Below are positions 1 through 30,836 of a stretch of 33,461 nucleotides of DNA, piece by piece. Source of the DNA: Sedimentisphaerales bacterium (lineage in GTDB: Bacteria; Planctomycetota; Phycisphaerae; Sedimentisphaerales; Anaerobacaceae); contig JARYLO010000015.1 in assembly GCA_029907605.1 (NCBI GenBank), positions 1 to 33,461 on the forward strand, in the 5' to 3' direction. Both the position numbers and the translations under genes were made by a program. A model generated the notes under the pieces. It saw only the letters and a program-made list of their open reading frames with translations, made no database searches and was not told the origin of the DNA. How positions within the stretch are numbered: the stretch's first letter is position 1; each line of letters opens with the position of its first letter.

Positions 1-1814
1 TTGACGATGATATTCAACAGGACCTGGTTTATCTGATTTGCATGGGCAGGTATCTCCGGGACATCGCCCAATTCCTTCACTACCTCTGTATCATACTTCA
101 ATTCATTCCTTGCCACTACCAGGGTGGCCTCTACACCTGCATTGATGTTGTAGCTATCCCACTTGTCAGCCTGGTCCGTCCTTGACAGATCCCTAAGGTT
201 CTTGATTATGGCCGTTACCCTCTCGAGGCCTTCCTTGGACTCATCGAACAATGATTGTATATCCTCGAGGATAAAGCCTATCTTCATCTTGGCCTTGAGG
301 CTATCGATCTGAGCGAGCCTTTCTGCCAGTTCTGGGTATTTGGCCGGGTTGAGCAGCTTTATCAACTCTTCGTATTGCATCACCAGTTGTCTGAGGCAGT
401 TGACGTATTTCTGTAAAGCCTCGAAGTTACTGGCAACGAACCCGACCGGTGTGTTCATCTCATGGGCTACACCTGCGGCCAGTTGCCCTATCGAGGCAAG
501 CCTTTCGGTCTGGACGATCTGCGATTGGATCTGCTTGAGTTGTTGATTTGCCTTCTCCAGACGCTCATAGGCCAGGGCAGAGGCCTGCTCTGCCAAGACC
601 TTGGCGGTGATGTCATGGAGTGCACCTTGATAGCCAGTGACCTGGCCGTGGATGTCGCGGATGAGGCTGCAGGCGACACTGACATACAATGGGTTAGACT
701 TGGCGGTCTTTAGGTTCAGCATCTCTATGTGCATGTCGCCTTGTTTGAGCTTCTCAAGGAATTGCCAGCGTTCCTCTGGTCGCTGCCAGAACTGTTCTGG
801 AAGGAAGGGCCTATCTAGTAACTGGTCTGGCTGGTCCAATTGAAATAGACTGCAGAATGCAGGGTTGAGGTATATGGTATTGGCTGCTGCATCCAGGATG
901 AATATCGGTGACTTGGAGTTGTCAAAGAGCTCCAGTGCGGTTTCGTGTTGCGCCTGGAAAAGCCTTTGTGTGGCCCTCAATACATCTCTTTGCGATATGA
1001 TCCCTACCAGCCTTGGGCCTTCCATCACCAGCACCCTGTGGATATGCATCTGCTCCATGATCCTTGCGGCACAGAATACCGAATAGCTAGGGTCTATGCT
1101 GACTAGAGGGCTTGTCATGACCTGTTCTACAGTGACCTCCGTTGGATCCAGTTGTTTGGTGGTGACCTTTATAAGTATATCCCGCTCCGTTACCACTCCT
1201 ATCGGCTCATCGCCCTTGACCACCACCACAGATGAGATCCTCCTTTCGGCCATGATGGCCGCGGCCCTTGCAATCGTGGCATCTGGTGGGACAACGGCCA
1301 CATCAGTCTGCATGATCTGGCCTACGGAATTGATTGGGTTGCAGGATGTCAGGGCACGGGTCAGGTCTGTCTCTGTAATGATCCCGACCAACTGGCCATT
1401 CTTTAGGACGGGCAGCCTCCTGATCCCCCTCTGGTAGATGATCCTTGCCGCCTCTATGATAGGTTCATCAGGGCCTATGTACTCAACCGGGCTAGACATA
1501 CAGGAGGCCACTGTCCTGGAATACAGCGAATCCATATTCAGCTCTGGACCCAGTGCGATCTTCTTGAGAAAATCCCTATTGGTCAGGATACCGACCACCT
1601 GGCCGGCCTTTACCGCCACGATGCACGAGACCTTGTGCTTGGCCATAGCCTGGGCCGCTGCCACGAGGCTTGCCTGAGGGTCTATAGTCAGGACGTTGGT
1701 GGTCATGATGTCCTTGACCTTCAGGAAGGCCCTTGTGGCTACCAAGGATGGCCAACTTGTGGCCTTCCTTGAGATCACACGTGTACAACTCTGTCTGACT
1801 TGTGCATTCGACAT
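1..1814 (-). CDS. CBS-PAS sensor histidine kinase (C-terminus beyond window)
   Basis: Predicted soluble sensor kinase that autophosphorylates a histidine in response to ligands bound by its CBS and PAS modules. Translating the minus strand from ATG 1814 gives four consecutive CBS motifs (about residues 33-275, with VKDIMTTNV, ASCMSSPVE, VGQIMQTDV and VEQVMTSPL as their openings). A PAS domain follows (about 295-405), then a HisKA domain with AHEMNTPVGF, the phosphorylated His being residue 451. The reading frame leaves the window around the N-box (QVLLNIIVN), so the ATPase domain is incomplete here. The start is set by an in-frame TAG at 1844-1842 and a G-rich Shine-Dalgarno-like run (AGGGGGGAT) just upstream. 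It starts inside the end of the neighbouring kinase ORF, so the two are probably co-translated. The kinase core is very similar to that neighbour, suggesting duplication. CBS ligand (often adenine nucleotides in the family) is unknown. Confidence 0.85.
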   Translation of the reverse strand, partial: MSNAQVRQSCTRVISRKATSWPSLVATRAFLKVKDIMTTNVLTIDPQASLVAAAQAMAKHKVSCIVAVKAGQVVGILTNRDFLKKIALGPELNMDSLYSRTVASCMSSPVEYIGPDEPIIEAARIIYQRGIRRLPVLKNGQLVGIITETDLTRALTSCNPINSVGQIMQTDVAVVPPDATIARAAAIMAERRISSVVVVKGDEPIGVVTERDILIKVTTKQLDPTEVTVEQVMTSPLVSIDPSYSVFCAARIMEQMHIHRVLVMEGPRLVGIISQRDVLRATQRLFQAQHETALELFDNSKSPIFILDAAANTIYLNPAFCSLFQLDQPDQLLDRPFLPEQFWQRPEERWQFLEKLKQGDMHIEMLNLKTAKSNPLYVSVACSLIRDIHGQVTGYQGALHDITAKVLAEQASALAYERLEKANQQLKQIQSQIVQTERLASIGQLAAGVAHEMNTPVGFVASNFEALQKYVNCLRQLVMQYEELIKLLNPAKYPELAERLAQIDSLKAKMKIGFILEDIQSLFDESKEGLERVTAIIKNLRDLSRTDQADKWDSYNINAGVEATLVVARNELKYDTEVVKELGDVPEIPAHANQINQVLLNIIV

Positions 1815-3525
1815 ACATCCCCCCTGCAGGAACCGCTGTCTCTAGCGGATCTGCCTGCTGTATAGGCAATTCGACAGTGAACGTCGTGCCCTTTCCCTCG
1901 GCACTATCTACATCTATCTTCCCATGGTGTTTATTGACAATGATGTCATAGGCGGTGGTCAGTCCAAGGCCCATGCCTTGACCAATCGGCTTGGTGGTGA
2001 AGAATGGATCATATATCTTCGAGATGTGTTCGCTCTTGATCCCAGGGCCATTGTCACTGATCTGGCATATGACCTTCTCATCAGCCATACCTGTCCTGAT
2101 CGTGATGGTGCCCCTATCCTGCCGTTCCTGGCTGGCTATGGCCTGTGCAGCATTTAGGATGATGTTGTAAAGGGCCTGGTTGACCTGTCCGGCCCTGCAG
2201 GATATGGGCCTGACATCACCCAGCTCCAGCCTGACATCCGCCATCTGCTGTATCGTCCTACCAGCCACAGCCAGTGTAGACCTTATGCCCTCGTTGATAT
2301 CGTAATCGCCCAATTCCTCTGCCTGGTCGATCCTGGCAAAATCGCGAAGGCTCTTGACGATCTGGCCGATCCTCTCCAGACCCTCCTTGGATTCATCGGA
2401 CAGATCCTTGATGTCATTTAACAAGAAGTCGATCCGCATCTGACTCCTGCGCTGGCGGATCTTCTCTGCCAGCTCTATTCGCCTCTCTCTCTGCCCTTGC
2501 TCTACTGCTACCGTCAGTTGTTCGTATAGGTCAAGTAGCTCCAGGAGCTTGTTCATGTAGGTCTGGAGGGTCTGAAAGTTGCTCGCCACAAAGCCAAGCG
2601 GTGTATTCATCTCATGTGCCATGCCTGCGGCGAGCTGTCCTATGGAGGCCAGTTTCTCGGATTGGACGATCTGGACCTGCATGGAGCGCAGCTCCTTATT
2701 TGCCCTCAAGAGGTCCTCGTTGGCCTTACGAATGGCCTGTTGGGCAGCAAGCTGCTCGGTCACATCCTGGCCAGTGCACAGGAGGGCCATGGGTTGGCCA
2801 GACTGATCGGAAAGTAGGGTTGCGGACCATTGGATCACCCTCTGCCTGCCATCCTTGGTCATTATGGGGAAGACCTCTTGGTCTGAGTGATCGCCTTTCA
2901 TTGCCTGGGCAAAGAGCAGTCGCCTTTCCTGACGCATGGCTGCTGGTACGAAGAGCTCGAACCAATCCCTTCCCTGCAACTCCTGCAGGTTATAGCCAGT
3001 AATGAGCTCAAGGTGCCTGTTGAACCTCACGATCTTGCCCTCCCGATCTAGCACCAGGACGATGACCTGTGCGGTCTGGATGAGCCTCTCGGCAAAGTCC
3101 CTCTCTTGTCTGATCAACTCCTGCTGTCTCTTCCTCTCGCAGGCATACCTGATGACCTTCTCAAGGACCTGTTGATTGAACTGCCCCTTGACCAGGTAAT
3201 CCTGTGCCCCTTGAGCGATGGCCTGTAGGCCGATCTCCTGGCTACCCTCGCCTGTTATGACGACCACCGCTGCCCATGGGTGTGCCTGATGGACGGTAGC
3301 TATAGTCGCCAGGCCATTGCTGTCAGGCAGGTTCAGGTCCAATAAGATCACATCTGGCCTGTCTTGACTGAGGATCTCCAGACATGTGGCCAGGGTCTGG
3401 GCAGAGAGGATCTTGTCTATTTCCAGGCCGGTTGCCTTCAATAGCCGCTCTGCCTGCTTGCGGTCTACCAGATCGTCCTCTACCAGCAGTATGCGGTATG
3501 CCGGTCTATCAGGAGAAAGCCCCAT
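1576..3525 (-). CDS. Hybrid response-regulator/PAS sensor histidine kinase
   Basis: A 649-aa protein with an N-terminal receiver domain (about residues 10-128; acidic pair D17/D18, phospho-acceptor D63 in ILLDLNLPDSNG). A PAS/PAC module follows (about 140-265), then a HisKA dimerisation helix with AHEMNTPLGF (His 304) and a HATPase_c domain (N-box NQALYNIILNAAQAI, G1 DNGPGIKSEH, G2 GQGMGLGLTTAYDI). All catalytic boxes look intact. The receiver comes before the kinase, as in kinases controlled by an upstream phosphorelay. The family would normally end shortly after TFTVELPIQ. The last 80 or so residues are a low-complexity tail that reads out of frame through the first 239 nt of the downstream CBS kinase gene. 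That tail may be a real overlap or the trace of a frameshift joining two parts of one longer kinase. No strong Shine-Dalgarno precedes ATG 3525. Kinase identity is firm, the 3' end less so. Confidence 0.85.
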   Translation of the reverse strand: MGLSPDRPAYRILLVEDDLVDRKQAERLLKATGLEIDKILSAQTLATCLEILSQDRPDVILLDLNLPDSNGLATIATVHQAHPWAAVVVITGEGSQEIGLQAIAQGAQDYLVKGQFNQQVLEKVIRYACERKRQQELIRQERDFAERLIQTAQVIVLVLDREGKIVRFNRHLELITGYNLQELQGRDWFELFVPAAMRQERRLLFAQAMKGDHSDQEVFPIMTKDGRQRVIQWSATLLSDQSGQPMALLCTGQDVTEQLAAQQAIRKANEDLLRANKELRSMQVQIVQSEKLASIGQLAAGMAHEMNTPLGFVASNFQTLQTYMNKLLELLDLYEQLTVAVEQGQRERRIELAEKIRQRRSQMRIDFLLNDIKDLSDESKEGLERIGQIVKSLRDFARIDQAEELGDYDINEGIRSTLAVAGRTIQQMADVRLELGDVRPISCRAGQVNQALYNIILNAAQAIASQERQDRGTITIRTGMADEKVICQISDNGPGIKSEHISKIYDPFFTTKPIGQGMGLGLTTAYDIIVNKHHGKIDVDSAEGKGTTFTVELPIQQADPLETAVPAGGMYVECTSQTELYTCDLKEGHKLAILGSHKGLPEGQGHHDHQRPDYRPSGKPRGSGPGYGQAQGLVHRGGKGRPGGRYPDQ

Positions 3526-3850
3526 AGCCCATCCAGATTAAAGTCTGTGTCCATGATATGGCCGAAGCCAAACAGCATGGCCCAGGACACACCTAGATAA
3601 TCGGCCAGGTGATATGGCCCTTGCGGTATATCGCCGGATTGCCAGGCGATAGCGGGCTGTTCTTGGCCCAGAATGGTGTTTTATGGGGCGACGAGCCTAG
3701 TTGGCCTGTCTTATAGGGCCTGAGGATTTTTGTTTTTTTTTCTTTTTGAGGTCCATCTGTGATCTTAAGATAGGCCTAAACTTAATGCATGCGAGGGGCA
3801 TGTCTGCGGGCCGGCATGTACAGACCCTTCGCCTGGCTGGGGAAAGTGAT
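3526..3850. other. Divergent intergenic region between two sensor kinases
   Basis: 325 nt with no convincing gene. It holds a perfect 7-bp inverted repeat (3629-3635 with 3645-3651, 9-nt loop, TATCGCC/GGCGATA) and a long T-rich tract (about 3727-3747). The ORF of the plus-strand kinase technically extends back to 3701, but that extension encodes the T-tract (a poly-Phe run) and lacks coding character, so I leave it out of the gene. Both divergent kinase promoters must lie here, but I could not assign convincing -35/-10 boxes. Confidence 0.5.
3629..3651. repeat. Inverted repeat (hairpin or operator candidate)
   Basis: TATCGCC at 3629-3635 is perfectly repeated in inverted form as GGCGATA at 3645-3651, separated by 9 nt. 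It sits between divergent kinase genes, about 100 nt upstream of the minus-strand start. It could be an operator or a weak hairpin; the sequence alone does not decide. Confidence 0.35.
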
Positions 3851-23229: not shown

Positions 23230-23348
23230 TTGTTGGTCATTTTGGCAGGGCCTTGAACGACAATCCAGATAAAGTTATCCTGTTTGTAGTGGGATCTGAT
23301 AGTGGAGGTCCCGGGTAGTGGGTAGGTCTGCAAAAAGGAGGATTCATC

Positions 23349-26304
23349 ATGCCATCTAGAAACAAATCCCTTGTCTGCGTTGTTTATATCTCCATAGTCC
23401 TGTACAGCTTGGCCTGGGGCTTTACCGCCGGTCCTGAGCCAGATCTAGTGGGTTGGTGGCGGTTGGATGAGGGTAGTGGCAACATTGCATACGACTCCAG
23501 TGGTAATGGCAATGACGGTACCATCAACGGCACCCCCGTCTGGGTGGAAGGTAAGCTCGGTGGGGCCCTCCAGTTCAATGGTATCGATTGCTATATTGAC
23601 TGTGGCAATGGTCCTTCTTTCCAGATACAGAGCCAGATCACCATGGCCTGCTGGTTAAAGACACCTGGCTTTACCAGGAACTGGGCTGCGATCATAACAA
23701 AGGGGGATACCGCATGGCGGCTGAGCAGGTCATCAGAGACCGGTAACTCCATCCACATGGGTATTAATGGCACTGTCACGTCAGGTATGCCATGGTTTGA
23801 TGCCAGCAAGCCCGTTACGGACAACGAATGGCACCATGTTGCCGGGGTCTATGACGGAAAGGAGGCAAGGATCTATATAGATGGTGTAGTCAGTGCCAGG
23901 TATACGGCATCAGGCCAGATAGCGGCCAACGACAACAATGTCTACATTGGTGAGAATCATGGTGCATCTGGTAGGCTTTACACCGGTATACTTGATGACG
24001 TCAGGATATACAGGCGCGGCCTTACCACCGAGCAGATCCAAGATCATCATGAAGGGGTATGCAGGCCCGATCGCATCTGAGCCTACACCTGCTGATGGTG
24101 CAACGGACGTACCGAGGGATGTCATCCTAGCGTGGAATCCTGGGCCTTATGCGAAGACCCGTGATGTATACCTGGGAACGGATCCATCTGTAATGGCCTC
24201 AGCCACGAGGGTACAGCCTATGGGCGTGTTGGTAAGTCGTGATCAGACCGCCACGAGCTATAGGCCATCCGTCCTATTGGACTTCAATCGGACCTATTAT
24301 TGGCGGGTGGACGAGGTCAATGGGCTGCCTGATCTGACGATACATCCTGGTCAGGTCTGGTCTTTTACCACAGAACCTTATGCATATCCCATCAGGCCAA
24401 TCAGTGTAACGGCATCTTCCACCTCTACCCCTTCTATGGGCCCCGAAAAGACCATAGATGGATCTGGTCTGGATGCCCAGGATGGACACGGCACCTCCTC
24501 CAGCACGATGTGGCTCAGCAAGAGCGGCGATTGGCCTGCCTGGATCATGTATGAGTTTGATAGGCCCTACAAGCTCTATCAGATGTGGGTATGGAACCAG
24601 AACCAGGGTATGGAGCCGTTTATGGGATATGGGGCAAGGGATGTGGTGGTAGAGGTCTCGGTGGACGGAATGGGTTGGACAACCATAGATGGGGTACCTG
24701 AATTCGCCCAGGGTACAGGGAAGGTAGGCTACAAACACAACACAGAGGTTGACATGAAGGGCCAGGTTGCACGGTATGTGAGGCTGACCGTGACCAGGTC
24801 TTGGGGCGGTAGGCAGCAGGCCGGCCTCAGTGAGGTCAGGTTCTTCTATGTCCCATTGCAGGCATTTGCCCCTGAGCCTGCTGATGGGGCCACCGATGTG
24901 GCCATAGATGGGCAGCTCTATTGGCGGCCTGGTCGCGAGGCTGTAGGCGCAGAGCTCTATCTTGGTAGCACTCGGGAGGAGGTGGCCAGCCAGTCCGTTG
25001 CTGCAATAATCCCTCCTGAAAACCGTTACCCAATGGAGGCCCTGGGCCTGGAATATGGCCGTACCTATTACTGGAAGGTCAATCAACTAGGCCCCCAGGC
25101 AGCCCTCTGGGAGGGGCAGACCTGGAGCTTTACCACCATTGGCTACAAGACCATTGATGATTTCGAGACCTATGACGATAGGTGCAGGCGTATCTTCTTT
25201 GCATGGGTGGATGGTGCAGGCCACTCAGGCTCCTTGGAGTGCAAGGTAGACCCGTCCTCAGGCAATGGGACCGGTTCGACTGTGGGCAATTTCCAGCCAC
25301 CCTTTGCAGAGCAGTTGATCACACATTCCGGTCAGCAGTCCATGCCATTGGGCTATGACAACACCCGTAGTCCTTACTATTCCGAGACGGTAAGGGAGTT
25401 CGATACGCCACAATCCTGGACAAAGGGTGGGCTTGACAGCCTGACCATATTCCTTCAAGGGGTACCTGCAGCCTTCTTGGAGCCTTCTGCTGGGCAGATC
25501 ATCATGAATGGTGCAGGTGCCAATATCGGCGGCTTTACAGATGAGTTCCGTTTTGTCTACAAGTCCCTGGCGGGCAATGGCTCCATAGTGGCCAGGGTTG
25601 AGGGGGTGGGTCTGACCCACCCTGCTGCAAAGGCGGCGGTCATGATAAGGCAGACACTTGACCCTACCTCCACATATGCCATGGTGGTAGTCACTCCAGC
25701 CAGTGGCATAGGGCTTGAATGGCGATCAGAGACCGGTCAAAATGCCCAGGCCGTGACTCAGACGGGATTGACTGCCCCTTACTGGGTCAGCCTGACCAGA
25801 CAAGGGGATGCGTTCACTGCCAGGGTATCGACCGACGGGGTCAATTGGGTGCCTGTGAGTGCAGATCCTGCTGCCTCTACCGTGACGATCAAGATGGGTA
25901 CGAATGTATATATAGGCCTGGCAGTGACCAGCCGGGTGGCAGGCAGGGCCTGCGGGGCCAGGTTCTCCCAGGTCTCAACGAGCGGCTTGATCAGTGGGTC
26001 CTGGCAGATCGCCGATATCGGTGCGGTTGCCCAGATCCAGGGTAACCAGCCAGAACCATTCTATGTGGGATTGAGGGATGCCAGCGGTGTAGTCAAGGTT
26101 GTCAACCATCCAGACCCAGTGGTGATCGCAACTGGGCTTTGGGAACAGTGGGATATACCCCTAAGTGCCTTCTCACAGGCAGGGCTTGACCTAGGCCATG
26201 TCAAGGCGATCATACTTGGTGTAGGCAACCATGTTTCGCCTATTTCAGGTGGCACCGGCACGATCTACATAGACGATATACAACTGACCCGAAGGGGCCA
26301 GTAA
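23349..26304 (+). pseudogene. Secreted LamG / discoidin / DUF1349-like protein, single frameshift
   Basis: Two overlapping reading frames look like one long secreted protein. Frame 1 (ATG 23349, strong AGGAGG site) encodes a signal peptide and a LamG jelly-roll domain (LVGWWRLDEGSGN...LDDVRIYRRGLTTEQIQ) and stops at 24080. Frame 2 continues from about 24043 with IMKGYAGPIASEPTPADGATDV, a repeat ending DEVNG...VWSFTT, an F5/8 (discoidin) domain (SVTASSTSTPSMGPEKTIDG), a second WSFTT repeat, and a DUF1349-like lectin fold (TDEFRFVYKSLAGNGSIVARVE). One base too many at about 24042-24048 separates them (EQIQD | IMKG). It would bind extracellular polysaccharide. Frame 2 has no ribosome site of its own. 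The lesion may be real decay, phase variation or an assembly indel. Confidence 0.75.
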
Positions 26305-26359: not shown

Positions 26360-27723
26360 CTACTGAGTGATGACAAAGTCATCAAAGACCGCGTAGCCGA
26401 TCTGATCAGAGTATGTGCAGTTGAATAGACCTACCTGTAGGGTAGTGGGCAGGTCTGGCCTACTGATCACCAACGGCTGTTGGGTGCCGTCAAAGATCCC
26501 CTGATACCCAGGATCGGTTAGAGGTATGAAGTTGACGCCGTCCGAGCTGATCCTAAAGTAGAAGTTGCTACCCTTTCGCTCAAGTTGGATATACGGATAC
26601 TGCTGGGCAATGGCAAAGGTGTCTGAACCTAGCCATGTGCCAGTGGTCTGGCCCAGTTCATCCCTGACCCCGTCCTTGGTACTGCTGGCAACGAATGCCG
26701 TCCAGGTCGGGAAGTAGCGCATGGAGACCCAGTTCTCCTGACCTCCATCACTAGCCGGATCCCTGGCGATGATCCCGCAGTCATTGTGATAAACAGGCGC
26801 AGCCAACGTGCCGGCGAACTCCGTGACCTTCACGGTGGCAACAAAGTCGCCGCTTATGGTCACGTATAGCATCGGACCAGGACCTGGATCCCAGATAGCG
26901 TTGACCGTGGACAGGTAGAGCTGACCTGGCCGGTTGACCGAGGCATTGCATGCCACTATGGTGCCATCTAGCAGGCCTGCATAGTTGCCCAGGTCCTCCA
27001 ATATGTAGTCATGTGCCGCCTCAAAGTCGTCCTTGAAGCCGAGTTGAGGTCTATCCGTCGAGATGGTCAGCTCATTTAGATACCCGTTGACCACGGTTAT
27101 GGCCACATAGTTGGTGGCGAACTTGGTGGTGCAGGTGGCAGAAGTGGTCAGTGTATTGGTTGGGTCATCTGCCTGTGTGAATGTGGCGGTGATGGTAGTG
27201 CCATCATCTGTGATCACGAACTTCCAGTCTTTGGCCTGTATGTTGCCAGGTATGTTTGCCCCTGATGTCAAGCTGACCCAAGGCCACTGGCCAGGTGTCT
27301 TTTCCTGTATATTGAGATCTGGAGGCCAGCCTTGAGCCAATGCCTGTGTCCAGAGGTTGATCCTTATGCCGCTGTCTAGTACGTGGCCAGGGCCTCCGCC
27401 GGAGTTGGCTGTGATGGCGGCCTTGTCCAGACGTCCATATCGCCGTCAGGGCCCAATGTGACCGAGCCTGTGATGATTAGTGGTGTGACGGCTGGGTCGT
27501 ACTGTTTGGCGGTGAGGAGGTAGTTAAGTTGTGTGGCTGGTCTATTGAAGAAGACTTGTCCGTTGGCCTGTACGATACTGACATCAGGGCCGTTTAGTGC
27601 CTGCCACTTGGCCAGATCCAGCTCAGCACCCTCAAAGTCATCCTCAACCAGCGTTGCGGCCAGACAGGGCGACAGTATCAAGAACAGAGTAGCGACCACC
27701 ATAAGGTAAGCAGATCTACGCAT
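26360..27723 (-). pseudogene. Secreted DUF1349/LamG-like protein, single frameshift
   Basis: Frame 1 (ATG 27723, AAGGAGG site) encodes a clear signal peptide (MRRSAYLMVVATLFLILSPC) and the start of a concanavalin-like domain (VEDDFEGAELDLAKWQAL), then stops at 27376 after DMDVWT. The neighbouring frame takes over in the same region (KAAITANSGGGPGHVL) and reads on through DFEAAHDYILEDLGNYAG and a second beta-sandwich copy ending GYAVFDDFVIT, with a stop at 26360. So the protein has two jelly-roll modules and one indel at about 27412-27430. No homopolymer marks the site. It faces the LamG gene across a shared terminator and likely served the same extracellular role. Confidence 0.7.
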
Positions 27724-28070: not shown

Positions 28071-28232
28071 GCGCAGAATTGAGAAAAAGCTAGATTTTGA
28101 GCAAATGCCAATGAGATGGGCCTTTGCGGTCGGGGCCTCAGGAGTTTATCTGATCCCGAGCGGGAAGAGGTTTTTCTTGTAATAAGGTGCTTGCGTTTAG
28201 ATGGGTGGAAAGGTCGTAGCTTGTCATGCTCA

Positions 28233-28804
28233 ATGGATGAAATACCTGAGGATCTGATCGAGTAGTGTCGGCAAGGCAATCGTTGTGCCCTTGAAGGACT
28301 GCTCAGATGCCTTCAGAGGCCGTCGCATGCATATATCGTCAGGATGGGATTCGCCGCCACAGGGTATGAGCCAGAGGATACGGTCCAGGAGGTCCTAGTG
28401 AAGATACGCACACGTATCAAGGGTTACAGGAGGCATGGGCAGGTTAGATTCACTGTGTGGGTCTTTACTTGGCCGGCAAGCACTGCATAAGTCTGTCCCG
28501 CAGGTCTAGTTTCCCATTTGATCAATCGCAAGCTGGCGACCGGCTTGCTGGGGCGATGGACCGTGGTGCAGATGGGCCGGTGCAGACACCCTTGCGGTCT
28601 GAGGCGGTAAGGCTGGTTGCAGCTGCCATACGGCGTCTGCCTGAGGAGGCCCGAAGCGAGTTTGTCCTGAGGTATTACCACCAGATGGGCTTTAAGGATA
28701 TTGCACAGGTCCTGGGATGTAGCGAAGGTGCAGCAAGGACAAGGGCTACCAGGGCGAGGCAGTCTATAGCTGCTGCCCTGGGGTCATACCTGATAGAGCC
28801 ATAA
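28233..28804 (+). pseudogene. ECF-type RNA polymerase sigma factor, broken
   Basis: From ATG 28233 the frame reads MDEIPEDLIE, then TAG (28263-28265), then CRQGNRCALEGLLRCLQRP and the sigma region 2 sequence GYEPEDTVQEVLVKIRTRI through RFTVWVFT. A missing base near 28466-28470 then shifts the frame, which continues LAGKHCISLSRRS and the region 4 helix-turn-helix (RRLPEEARSEFVLRYYHQM, FKDIAQVLGCSEGAARTRATRAR), stopping at 28802-28804. Both regions needed for promoter binding are recognisable, and the restored length (about 190 aa) is typical. TAG is used as a normal stop nearby (topA, the NDK gene), so recoding is unlikely. It precedes an anti-sigma-like gene by 11 nt. Confidence 0.8.
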
Positions 28805-28815
28805 GGGGACATCAG

Positions 28816-29166
28816 ATGGACCCAATCTACGCGTGCCAGCAAGTTCGTGATCAGACAGATCAGATGACTACAGGGCAGCTTCAGACCATCAGGGACCTGA
28901 TGCCATTGATTGCACATCTTGAAGGATGTGCTGGTTGTAGGGAGTATCTCAAGGGCTCGTTGGACCTAGCCTGCGTCCTGGACCAATGGGAGGTACCTGA
29001 ACCGAGGCGGGATATAACCCCATCAGCCCTATCGAGCCTCTTTCGCATCCATCCTCACCAGACGATCGGAGGCCACCTTCGCTCGTTAATCGGTTTTCGG
29101 GTCCGCCTGCCTGCAGTGGCTGCGGCATTGCCAACCCACTGGGCATTTTATCGACTGTACCGATAG
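28816..29166 (+). CDS. Putative zinc-binding anti-sigma factor (possibly truncated)
   Basis: A 116-aa protein 11 nt after the sigma gene, with AAGGGG upstream of ATG 28816. It has an H-x3-C-x2-C motif (HLEGCAGCREYL, about residues 34-45), as in ZAS/zinc-finger anti-sigma factors, which bind the ECF sigma and release it on a signal. Membrane-anchored members continue into a transmembrane helix. Here the chain ends soon after a short hydrophobic piece (LPAVAAAL), so the gene may be truncated like its neighbours. The position downstream of a sigma gene supports the role. Confidence 0.55.
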   Translation: MDPIYACQQVRDQTDQMTTGQLQTIRDLMPLIAHLEGCAGCREYLKGSLDLACVLDQWEVPEPRRDITPSALSSLFRIHPHQTIGGHLRSLIGFRVRLPAVAAALPTHWAFYRLYR

Positions 29167-29204
29167 AAAACGACAAGACAGGAAGGCCATTGTAAGGAGA
29201 TCAT

Positions 29205-30199
29205 ATGTTCCAACATAAGTCAGTTCTTGCAATCGTGAGGTTTGTTTGGCATCGCAATCTGCCAACGATGGCCAGGCCGTCCGCGATCTGATCCAGCGAT
29301 ACAATCTCTTGATGGCCCCAAAGGATGTAGACGGGATCATGCAATTGTGTCTTGCGGAGATGGACTATTCTCCCCTCGATCAAGATAGCATGCGGAAGGC
29401 CATCGGAAGCAGGCTTAACCAGAAGGGACCTGTGAGGATGGAGATAGGAGATATTGGATGTAATCCATGTCTTGGACAGAGGGCCTACCGAGGCGGCAGG
29501 GACGTAGGGTTTCAGCCAGGTCGCGGAGTTCAGGCCTTCTGAAGGTCATCAGACCCACAGGCGGATGCGGGTATATCTGTCATCGCATCCAATGCTGTAT
29601 TTCTTTATTTGCGATGCAGTACCACCTGAGGCATTCGAGGGGTGGTCTGCCCAGTTTGATGAGATCATATCGAGCTTGCGTCTTGCTAAATCACAGGAGG
29701 GTATCAGCTCCAAGAGGCAGTGGCTGCTGAACAGGCCATTGGCCAGGTCACAGGCCGTGTATATACATCCAGCCAGTTCAATTGCTTTATCGCTGCACCT
29801 TCAGGATGGCAGATCGCAACCAGTCTGAATCCAGCTCACCTAGTGGAGATGCAGTACCAGAAGTGCAGGTCCTTGGCCAGGTTGATAGCGGTCAAAGGGC
29901 TTGGTCCGGACGCCACGGTCGATGAGGTATTCAACAGGAGACTCGATTCCCTCAAGCCGGTGGTGACCGACTTCAATGAGGTCAGGCGGACTGAGACAGT
30001 ATTGGCGGGTATGCCTGCCATAGAGTCGGTACAGACCTTCAAGATAGAGGAGCTAGGCGTGTTCCACGTCAAGGAGGTGACGGTACTGCTGGATGGCATC
30101 TATTACCTGATCCTTTGCCAATGTATAGAACCATACAACCTTGCGGTGCTGGAGAAGGACTTTGACGCAATCATAAGGAGCCTTGGGTTTACCCAGTAA
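29205..30199 (+). pseudogene. Secreted SnoaL-like / tandem PsbP-like protein, heavily disrupted
   Basis: The start is clear: AAGGAG (29194-29199) 5 nt before ATG 29205, then a signal-peptide beginning (MFQHKSVLAIV). The frame then shifts (about 29236-29246) to ASQSANDGQAVRDLIQRYN, a SnoaL/DUF4440-like domain. It shifts back near 29455 (DVIHVLDRGPTEAA) and meets TAG at 29505-29507. It reads on in that frame through YFFICDAVPPEAFEGW...DEIISSLRL, and shifts again near 29712 into a second, similar domain (FNCFIAAPSGWQI...YYLILCQCIEP...DAIIRSLGF) ending at 30199. The two halves look like repeated PsbP/Mog1-like domains. With three frameshifts and one nonsense codon it cannot be expressed whole. 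It is the likely target or partner of the upstream sigma/anti-sigma pair. Confidence 0.75.
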
Positions 30200-30234: not shown

Positions 30235-30621
30235 ATGACCCACATGAAATATGGATGCATAGTTTACCTCATTTGCAGCGCGTGCCTGTTGGCTGATGTG
30301 GTGTATCTAGAGGATGGTTGGACGCTGTTGGGGATAGTCCAGGGACTGGATGCTGGGGTTCTTCTACTCAGTAGCCCAACGATTGGCGATCTACGTGTGG
30401 GGCAATCCAGCGTATGGTATTGGGCAAGGGAGGAGCCAAACTGTTTGCATGCATCATTCCAGATACTGCCTGCTGGCCAGGCCCTGCTTGGCCGGATGTT
30501 CGCAAGGACCATCAAACCAGATCCCACCTTACAGTTACCGGGTCTTGGTGTCTGGGAAAGGCGGGTGCTTTGCCAGCAGAGACTTGTACTGGAGCTGATC
30601 CTGGATCGGGCAATCCGCTAG
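30235..30621 (+). CDS. Small exported hypothetical protein
   Basis: A 128-aa frame from ATG 30235 (alternative ATG 30244). The N-terminus (MKYGCIVYLICSACLLADVV) looks like a signal peptide. The following VVYLEDGWTLLGIVQGLDAGVLLLSS resembles a small beta-barrel repeat common in secreted bacterial proteins. The rest has no recognised domain and an odd, arginine/leucine-rich end, so a downstream frameshift is possible given its neighbours. The ribosome site is weak. It follows the broken PsbP-like gene by 35 nt. Confidence 0.4.
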   Translation: MTHMKYGCIVYLICSACLLADVVYLEDGWTLLGIVQGLDAGVLLLSSPTIGDLRVGQSSVWYWAREEPNCLHASFQILPAGQALLGRMFARTIKPDPTLQLPGLGVWERRVLCQQRLVLELILDRAIR

Positions 30622-30669: not shown

Positions 30670-30685
30670 TAAATTAGTGCGCTCC

Positions 30686-30773
30686 GGAGAGGTGTCGGAG
30701 TGGCTTATCGAGCAGCCTTGGAAAGGCTGTGTCCCGATTCTCGGGACCGTGGGTTCGAATCCCACCCTCTCCG
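30686..30773 (+). tRNA. tRNA-Ser (anticodon GGA)
   Basis: An 88-nt cloverleaf: acceptor GGAGAGG/CCTCTCC, anticodon stem CAGCC/GGCTG with loop TTGGAAA (anticodon GGA at 30720-30722), a long variable arm (GTCCCGA-TTC-TCGGGAC) typical of class II tRNAs, and a T arm GTGGG-TTCGAAT-CCCAC. The discriminator is G and CCA is not encoded. It decodes TCC/TCT serine codons. Confidence 0.95.
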
Positions 30774-30836
30774 TTATTATCCCACATGCCTTCCCCTAAG
30801 CAATCGCCCTGTTACCTTGCTCACATATGCCGCGGG

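What the first reader, a model, noticed from the sequence alone, without database searches (positions are those of the whole stretch)
28233..30199. Decayed ECF sigma / anti-sigma / secreted effector operon
Three adjacent same-strand genes carry at least six lesions in total: a nonsense codon and a frameshift in the sigma gene, a possible truncation of the anti-sigma gene, and three frameshifts plus one nonsense codon in the effector. Domains remain readable on both sides of each lesion, so decay is recent, or the assembly is poor here. Housekeeping genes in the window show no such damage. The restored operon (ECF sigma, zinc anti-sigma, SnoaL plus two PsbP-like domains) is itself an unusual set.
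Basis: partly seen in the sequence, partly recalled or inferred. Interest (0 to 1): 0.72.

Follow-up and report, generated by a model that had tools for sequence, protein, structure and literature searches.

The report
Decayed copy of stress-response sigma operon
This is the broken remnant of a four-gene bacterial envelope-response operon that is still nearly intact in four related Planctomycetota genomes; the damage is genuine gene decay, including large deletions and loss of its switch-on promoter, and is an ordinary kind of event.

Summary
Homologous four-gene operons stand in four relatives (effector, anti-sigma and gene 4 intact in all four; sigma intact in three). Against these, the window copy has an in-frame TAG and a frameshift in sigma; an anti-sigma cut short before its membrane helix; two clear and one probable frameshift, a TAG and a deletion of about 140 codons in the effector; and an in-frame loss of roughly 90 codons in gene 4. 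The relatives' sigma genes share a canonical ECF promoter, GSGAAC-N14-(T/C)GCGTT; the window keeps only the -10 half. About 4,700 codons of conserved neighbours show no lesion. Amino-acid change is raised at the operon in this lineage but not in TopA. Large deletions, promoter loss, non-homopolymer lesion sites and accelerated change argue against base-call error as the main cause, though single indels remain unproven without reads. The intact module is rare and apparently undescribed, but of a well-known kind. Ordinary pseudogenisation; modest interest.

The parts
28166..28197 (+). Remnant of the ECF autoregulatory promoter: TGCGTT (-10 half) kept near 28190, the conserved GSGAAC -35 half missing
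   Evidence: alignment: GSGAAC-N14-TGCGTT in G021, G044, G053 (and GCGAAC-N14-CGCGTT in G052); no match at this place in the window and none in all of G000
28233..28804 (+). ECF sigma factor pseudogene; TAG at 28263-28265, frame change near 28466-28470; region 2 degraded, region 4 well kept
   Evidence: tblastn with G021/G044/G053 sigma; Pfam Sigma70_r2 20.6 bits (below its cut-off) vs 56.4 in G021, Sigma70_r4_2 54.8 vs 54.7
28816..29166 (+). Truncated zinc anti-sigma gene; Hx3Cx2C kept, membrane helix and C-terminal part absent
   Evidence: aligns to residues 23-126 of the 217-aa G021 protein; H, C, C invariant in all five
29206..30199 (+). Secreted effector pseudogene; probable frameshift in signal-peptide stretch, ~140-codon deletion with frame change at 29446-29469, TAG at 29505-29507, frame change at 29685-29711
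   Evidence: three pieces match residues 21-85, 227-299 and 302-470 of the 470-aa G021 protein (35, 53 and 65% identity)
30238..30621 (+).
   Evidence: two same-frame matches to G021 residues 23-90 and 189-227 (230 aa); start of gene approximate

Best explanation
A once functional, self-controlled envelope-response operon (ECF sigma, membrane-bound zinc anti-sigma, secreted PsbP-like protein, secreted beta-rich protein) has become a pseudogene cluster in this lineage. In the intact ancestor the anti-sigma would hold the sigma factor until an envelope signal released it; sigma would then drive its own promoter, raising the operon including two exported proteins (inferred from family knowledge). 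In the window the promoter -35 element, the sigma reading frame, the anti-sigma membrane part, half of one effector repeat and much of gene 4 are lost, so the circuit should be dead. Shown: anatomy, relatives, lesions, promoter conservation. Inferred: signalling mechanism, envelope location, order of loss.
For: Homologous four-gene operon in G021, G044, G053 and G052, with effector, anti-sigma and gene 4 open in all and sigma open in three. Pieces in different frames, two in-frame TAGs and three long deletions. Conserved ECF promoter, one genome-wide copy in G021 and in G044, exactly upstream of sigma, none in G000. Eleven control genes/segments, 4,738 codons, no lesion. At sites where outgroups G044 and G053 agree, G000 differs at 130 and G021 at 81 of 317 in the operon, but 54 and 56 of 383 in TopA (Fisher P = 0.03). 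No homopolymer of 5 or more at any coding lesion. G000 has 21 sigma region 4 hits against 44 in G021, and at least one other ECF sigma looks frameshifted.
Against: No reads could be mapped; single-base lesions may be partly sequencing error, and an isolated frameshift also occurs in the LamG gene of the same contig. The rate test is only modestly significant, rests on one control gene, and synonymous sites are near saturation. Some pieces (sigma region 4, effector C-terminus, anti-sigma) still look well conserved.
Confidence: 0.9

Rival explanations
1. The lesions are sequencing or assembly errors in a poorly covered stretch and the operon is intact in the organism.
For: MAG of 225 contigs; an isolated frameshift also in the LamG/discoidin gene at about 24022-24041.
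Against: Three deletions of roughly 90-140 codons, one of them in frame, plus loss of the promoter -35 half; lesions not in homopolymers; 4,738 control codons on the same contig without a lesion; raised amino-acid change inside the aligned pieces.
Confidence: 0.06
2. Part of the locus is still functional: the region-4-only sigma fragment and the shortened soluble zinc anti-sigma (116 aa, Hx3Cx2C kept) persist as a reduced regulatory pair, or the 159-169 aa C-terminal PsbP-like domain is still made.
For: Sigma70_r4_2 scores as well as in the intact relative (54.8 vs 54.7 bits); anti-sigma frame open with ATG; effector C-terminal piece open for 169 codons at 65% identity.
Against: G000/G021 change ratio is about 1.8-2.0 in these pieces against 0.96 in TopA; no promoter and no signal peptide for the effector fragment; small open frames survive by chance in recent pseudogenes.
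Confidence: 0.04
3. Programmed recoding (stop read-through and frameshifting) expresses the full proteins.
For: Domains are readable on both sides of each lesion.
Against: Would need several different events in one operon, cannot restore deleted codons, and homologues need none.
Confidence: 0.005

Closest known systems
ECF sigma factor with cognate class I (ASDI) zinc anti-sigma factor operons (SigW/RsiW-like, RpoE-like; PMC7406223, PMC8103513)
   Same: Intact relatives: only sigma regions 2 and 4, adjacent anti-sigma with Hx3Cx2C and an apparent membrane helix, AAC/CGTT-type promoter upstream of the sigma gene
   Different: Two further, probably secreted proteins of no named family follow in the operon; below the cut-off of every specific NCBIfam sigma model shown; the window copy is broken in all genes
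PsbP / PsbP_2 / DcrB-like proteins (Pfam PF01789, PF18933, PF08786)
   Same: Weak similarity of the two internally repeated domains of the intact effector
   Different: All matches below Pfam cut-offs; N-terminal region and two-repeat layout differ; first repeat half deleted in the window

Membership tests
ECF sigma factor | Only sigma-70 regions 2 and 4 | tested here: met
   For the intact relatives: G021 and G044 proteins score 56.4/64.3 (r2) and 54.7/47.9 (r4_2) bits and G021 and G053 match TIGR02937 over its cut-off; in the window region 2 is below its cut-off and split from region 4 by a frame change
ECF sigma factor | AAC ... CGT(T) promoter upstream of own gene (common, not universal) | tested here: met
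   Met in four relatives: GSGAAC-N14-(T/C)GCGTT; not met in the window, -35 half absent
Class I zinc anti-sigma factor (ASDI) | Hx3Cx2C motif in an N-terminal domain next to the sigma gene | tested here: met
   Invariant H, C, C in relatives and window; weak NCBIfam anti-sigma match in relatives
Class I zinc anti-sigma factor (ASDI) | Four-helix ASDI fold binding sigma | not tested
PsbP-like protein | Match to Pfam PsbP/PsbP_2 over the curated cut-off | tested here: not met
   Best 22.2 bits vs cut-off 23.5 (G044), 15.7 vs 27 (G021); structure prediction too poor to decide (pLDDT 39)
SnoaL-like domain | Match to a SnoaL/NTF2 family model | tested here: inconclusive
   No Pfam SnoaL hit; only an E = 0.23 sequence match of residues 29-101 to de novo designed apixaban-binding proteins, NTF2-like by my own knowledge

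The most novel reading that the evidence does not exclude
The decay is not complete: the locus survives as a minimal pair of a region-4-only sigma fragment and a soluble zinc anti-sigma, kept for a new regulatory role after loss of the membrane sensor.
Probability: 0.04. Interest if true: 0.55.

Novelty: new member of a known kind. Interest (0 to 1): 0.25.

Why it matters
It shows the combined loss of one ECF signalling circuit (promoter, sigma, sensor and outputs) in an uncultured planctomycete, with homologous operons at hand for comparison. The intact operon itself is a rare, apparently undescribed, self-contained ECF module with two probably secreted proteins of unknown role, which relatives make testable.

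Tried and rejected
Synonymous/non-synonymous rates: third positions differ at 0.46-0.69 between G000 and G021, near saturation, so only codon-position ratios and a relative-rate test were used. Effector structure prediction failed (pLDDT 39) and was not searched. Gene 4 model (pLDDT 84) resembles beta-rich domains of M1 aminopeptidases and oligosaccharyltransferase subunits at TM about 0.4-0.5, too weak to name a family. Many stop-containing alignments come from shadow frames of the GC-rich G021 genome and were discarded. Literature search for this order together with ECF found nothing. Weak effector hits in G049, G176 and G195 were not counted as the operon. Programmed recoding was considered and dropped because deleted codons cannot be recoded.

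Full report
Observation. Translated comparison places the window pieces on homologous genes from four relatives. The sigma gene starts at 28233, has an in-frame TAG at 28263-28265 and changes frame near 28466-28470. The anti-sigma frame (28816-29166) matches residues 23-126 of a 217-aa relative and then stops, without the membrane helix and C-terminal part. The effector is in pieces: residues 21-85 at 29252-29446, 227-299 at 29469-29684 (with a TAG at 29505-29507) and 302-470 at 29690-30196; the roughly 140 codons between the first two are deleted. A frameshift in the signal-peptide stretch is probable. A fourth gene follows (about 30238-30621), which in relatives is 230-239 aa and here has lost roughly 90 codons in frame.

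State of the relatives. Effector, anti-sigma and gene 4 are full-length open frames in G021, G044, G053 and G052. Sigma is full-length in G021, G044 and G053; in G052 (L100) the listed sigma frame begins at a TTG at 3756 and the upstream ATG lies in another frame, so a small frameshift near the N-terminus is possible there, real or a sequencing error.

More than chance. Eleven conserved genes or segments of the same window, 4,738 codons, align to the same-genus genome G021 in one frame without a stop. Taking the 95% upper bound of that rate, five or more small lesions in the operon have P about 2e-5. The coding lesions are not in homopolymer runs of five or more. The three long deletions are not of a kind that base-calling errors make.

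Promoter. Upstream of sigma, G021, G044 and G053 share GSGAAC-N14-TGCGTT, and G052 has GCGAAC-N14-CGCGTT. This fits the AAC/CGT(T) promoters of ECF factors (PMC8103513). The exact pattern occurs once in G021 and once in G044, each time at this operon, twice in G053 (one at the operon), and nowhere in G000. The window keeps a TGCGTT but not the -35 half. So the circuit probably controls mainly itself in intact relatives, and its switch is lost here.

Selection. Where outgroups G044 and G053 agree, G000 differs at 130 and G021 at 81 of 317 operon sites; for TopA, the one control gene used for this test, the numbers are 54 and 56 of 383. The difference between the ratios is modestly significant (P = 0.03). 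Codon-position patterns still look coding. The decay is therefore recent compared with the genus split but not brand new (inference).

What it is. Intact relatives show an ECF sigma factor with regions 2 and 4, an anti-sigma with Hx3Cx2C (motif as in PMC7406223), a probably secreted protein with two related domains (internal repeat; weak PsbP/DcrB similarity) and a probably secreted beta-rich protein. Membrane helix and signal peptides are read from the sequences by eye; no dedicated predictor was run. The operon is rare: the four relatives plus the window among 161 genomes of the order, and no further clear case in 397 genomes drawn from the class. The relatives are MAGs titled Phycisphaerae, Sedimentisphaerales and Planctomycetota.

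Mechanism. By analogy with characterised ECF/class I anti-sigma pairs, the anti-sigma would hold sigma at the membrane until a signal frees it, sigma would then transcribe its own operon, and the two exported proteins would be the output. Promoter anatomy and gene order are shown; the signal, the release step and the role of the exported proteins are inferred or unknown. In the window every step has lost a part.

Genome context. G000 has 21 sigma region 4 matches against 44 in G021, and another ECF sigma at G000:C22 appears frameshifted, so loss of ECF systems may be wider in this lineage; this was not surveyed fully.

Verdict.

Noticed in passing
window 23343-26304 (+): LamG/discoidin-type secreted gene split by one frameshift at about 24022-24041; the G021 homologue spans it in one frame.
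   Followed up: partly
window 26360-27723 (-): Two neighbouring minus-strand frames (326 and 115 aa) may be one secreted protein split by a frameshift; a 68% DNA match lies in G000:C169.
   Followed up: no
L043 1468-2033 (G000:C22): Another ECF sigma gene of this genome appears frameshifted between regions 2 and 4, with a possible anti-sigma downstream.
   Followed up: partly
L100 3729-3780 (G052): Sigma N-terminus of this relative seems to carry a small frameshift; real or sequencing error.
   Followed up: partly
window 1576-3525 (-): Sensor kinase frame ends in a tail that looks out of frame.
   Followed up: no
window 30685-30774 (+): tRNA-Ser (gga) directly downstream of the decayed operon.
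   Followed up: no
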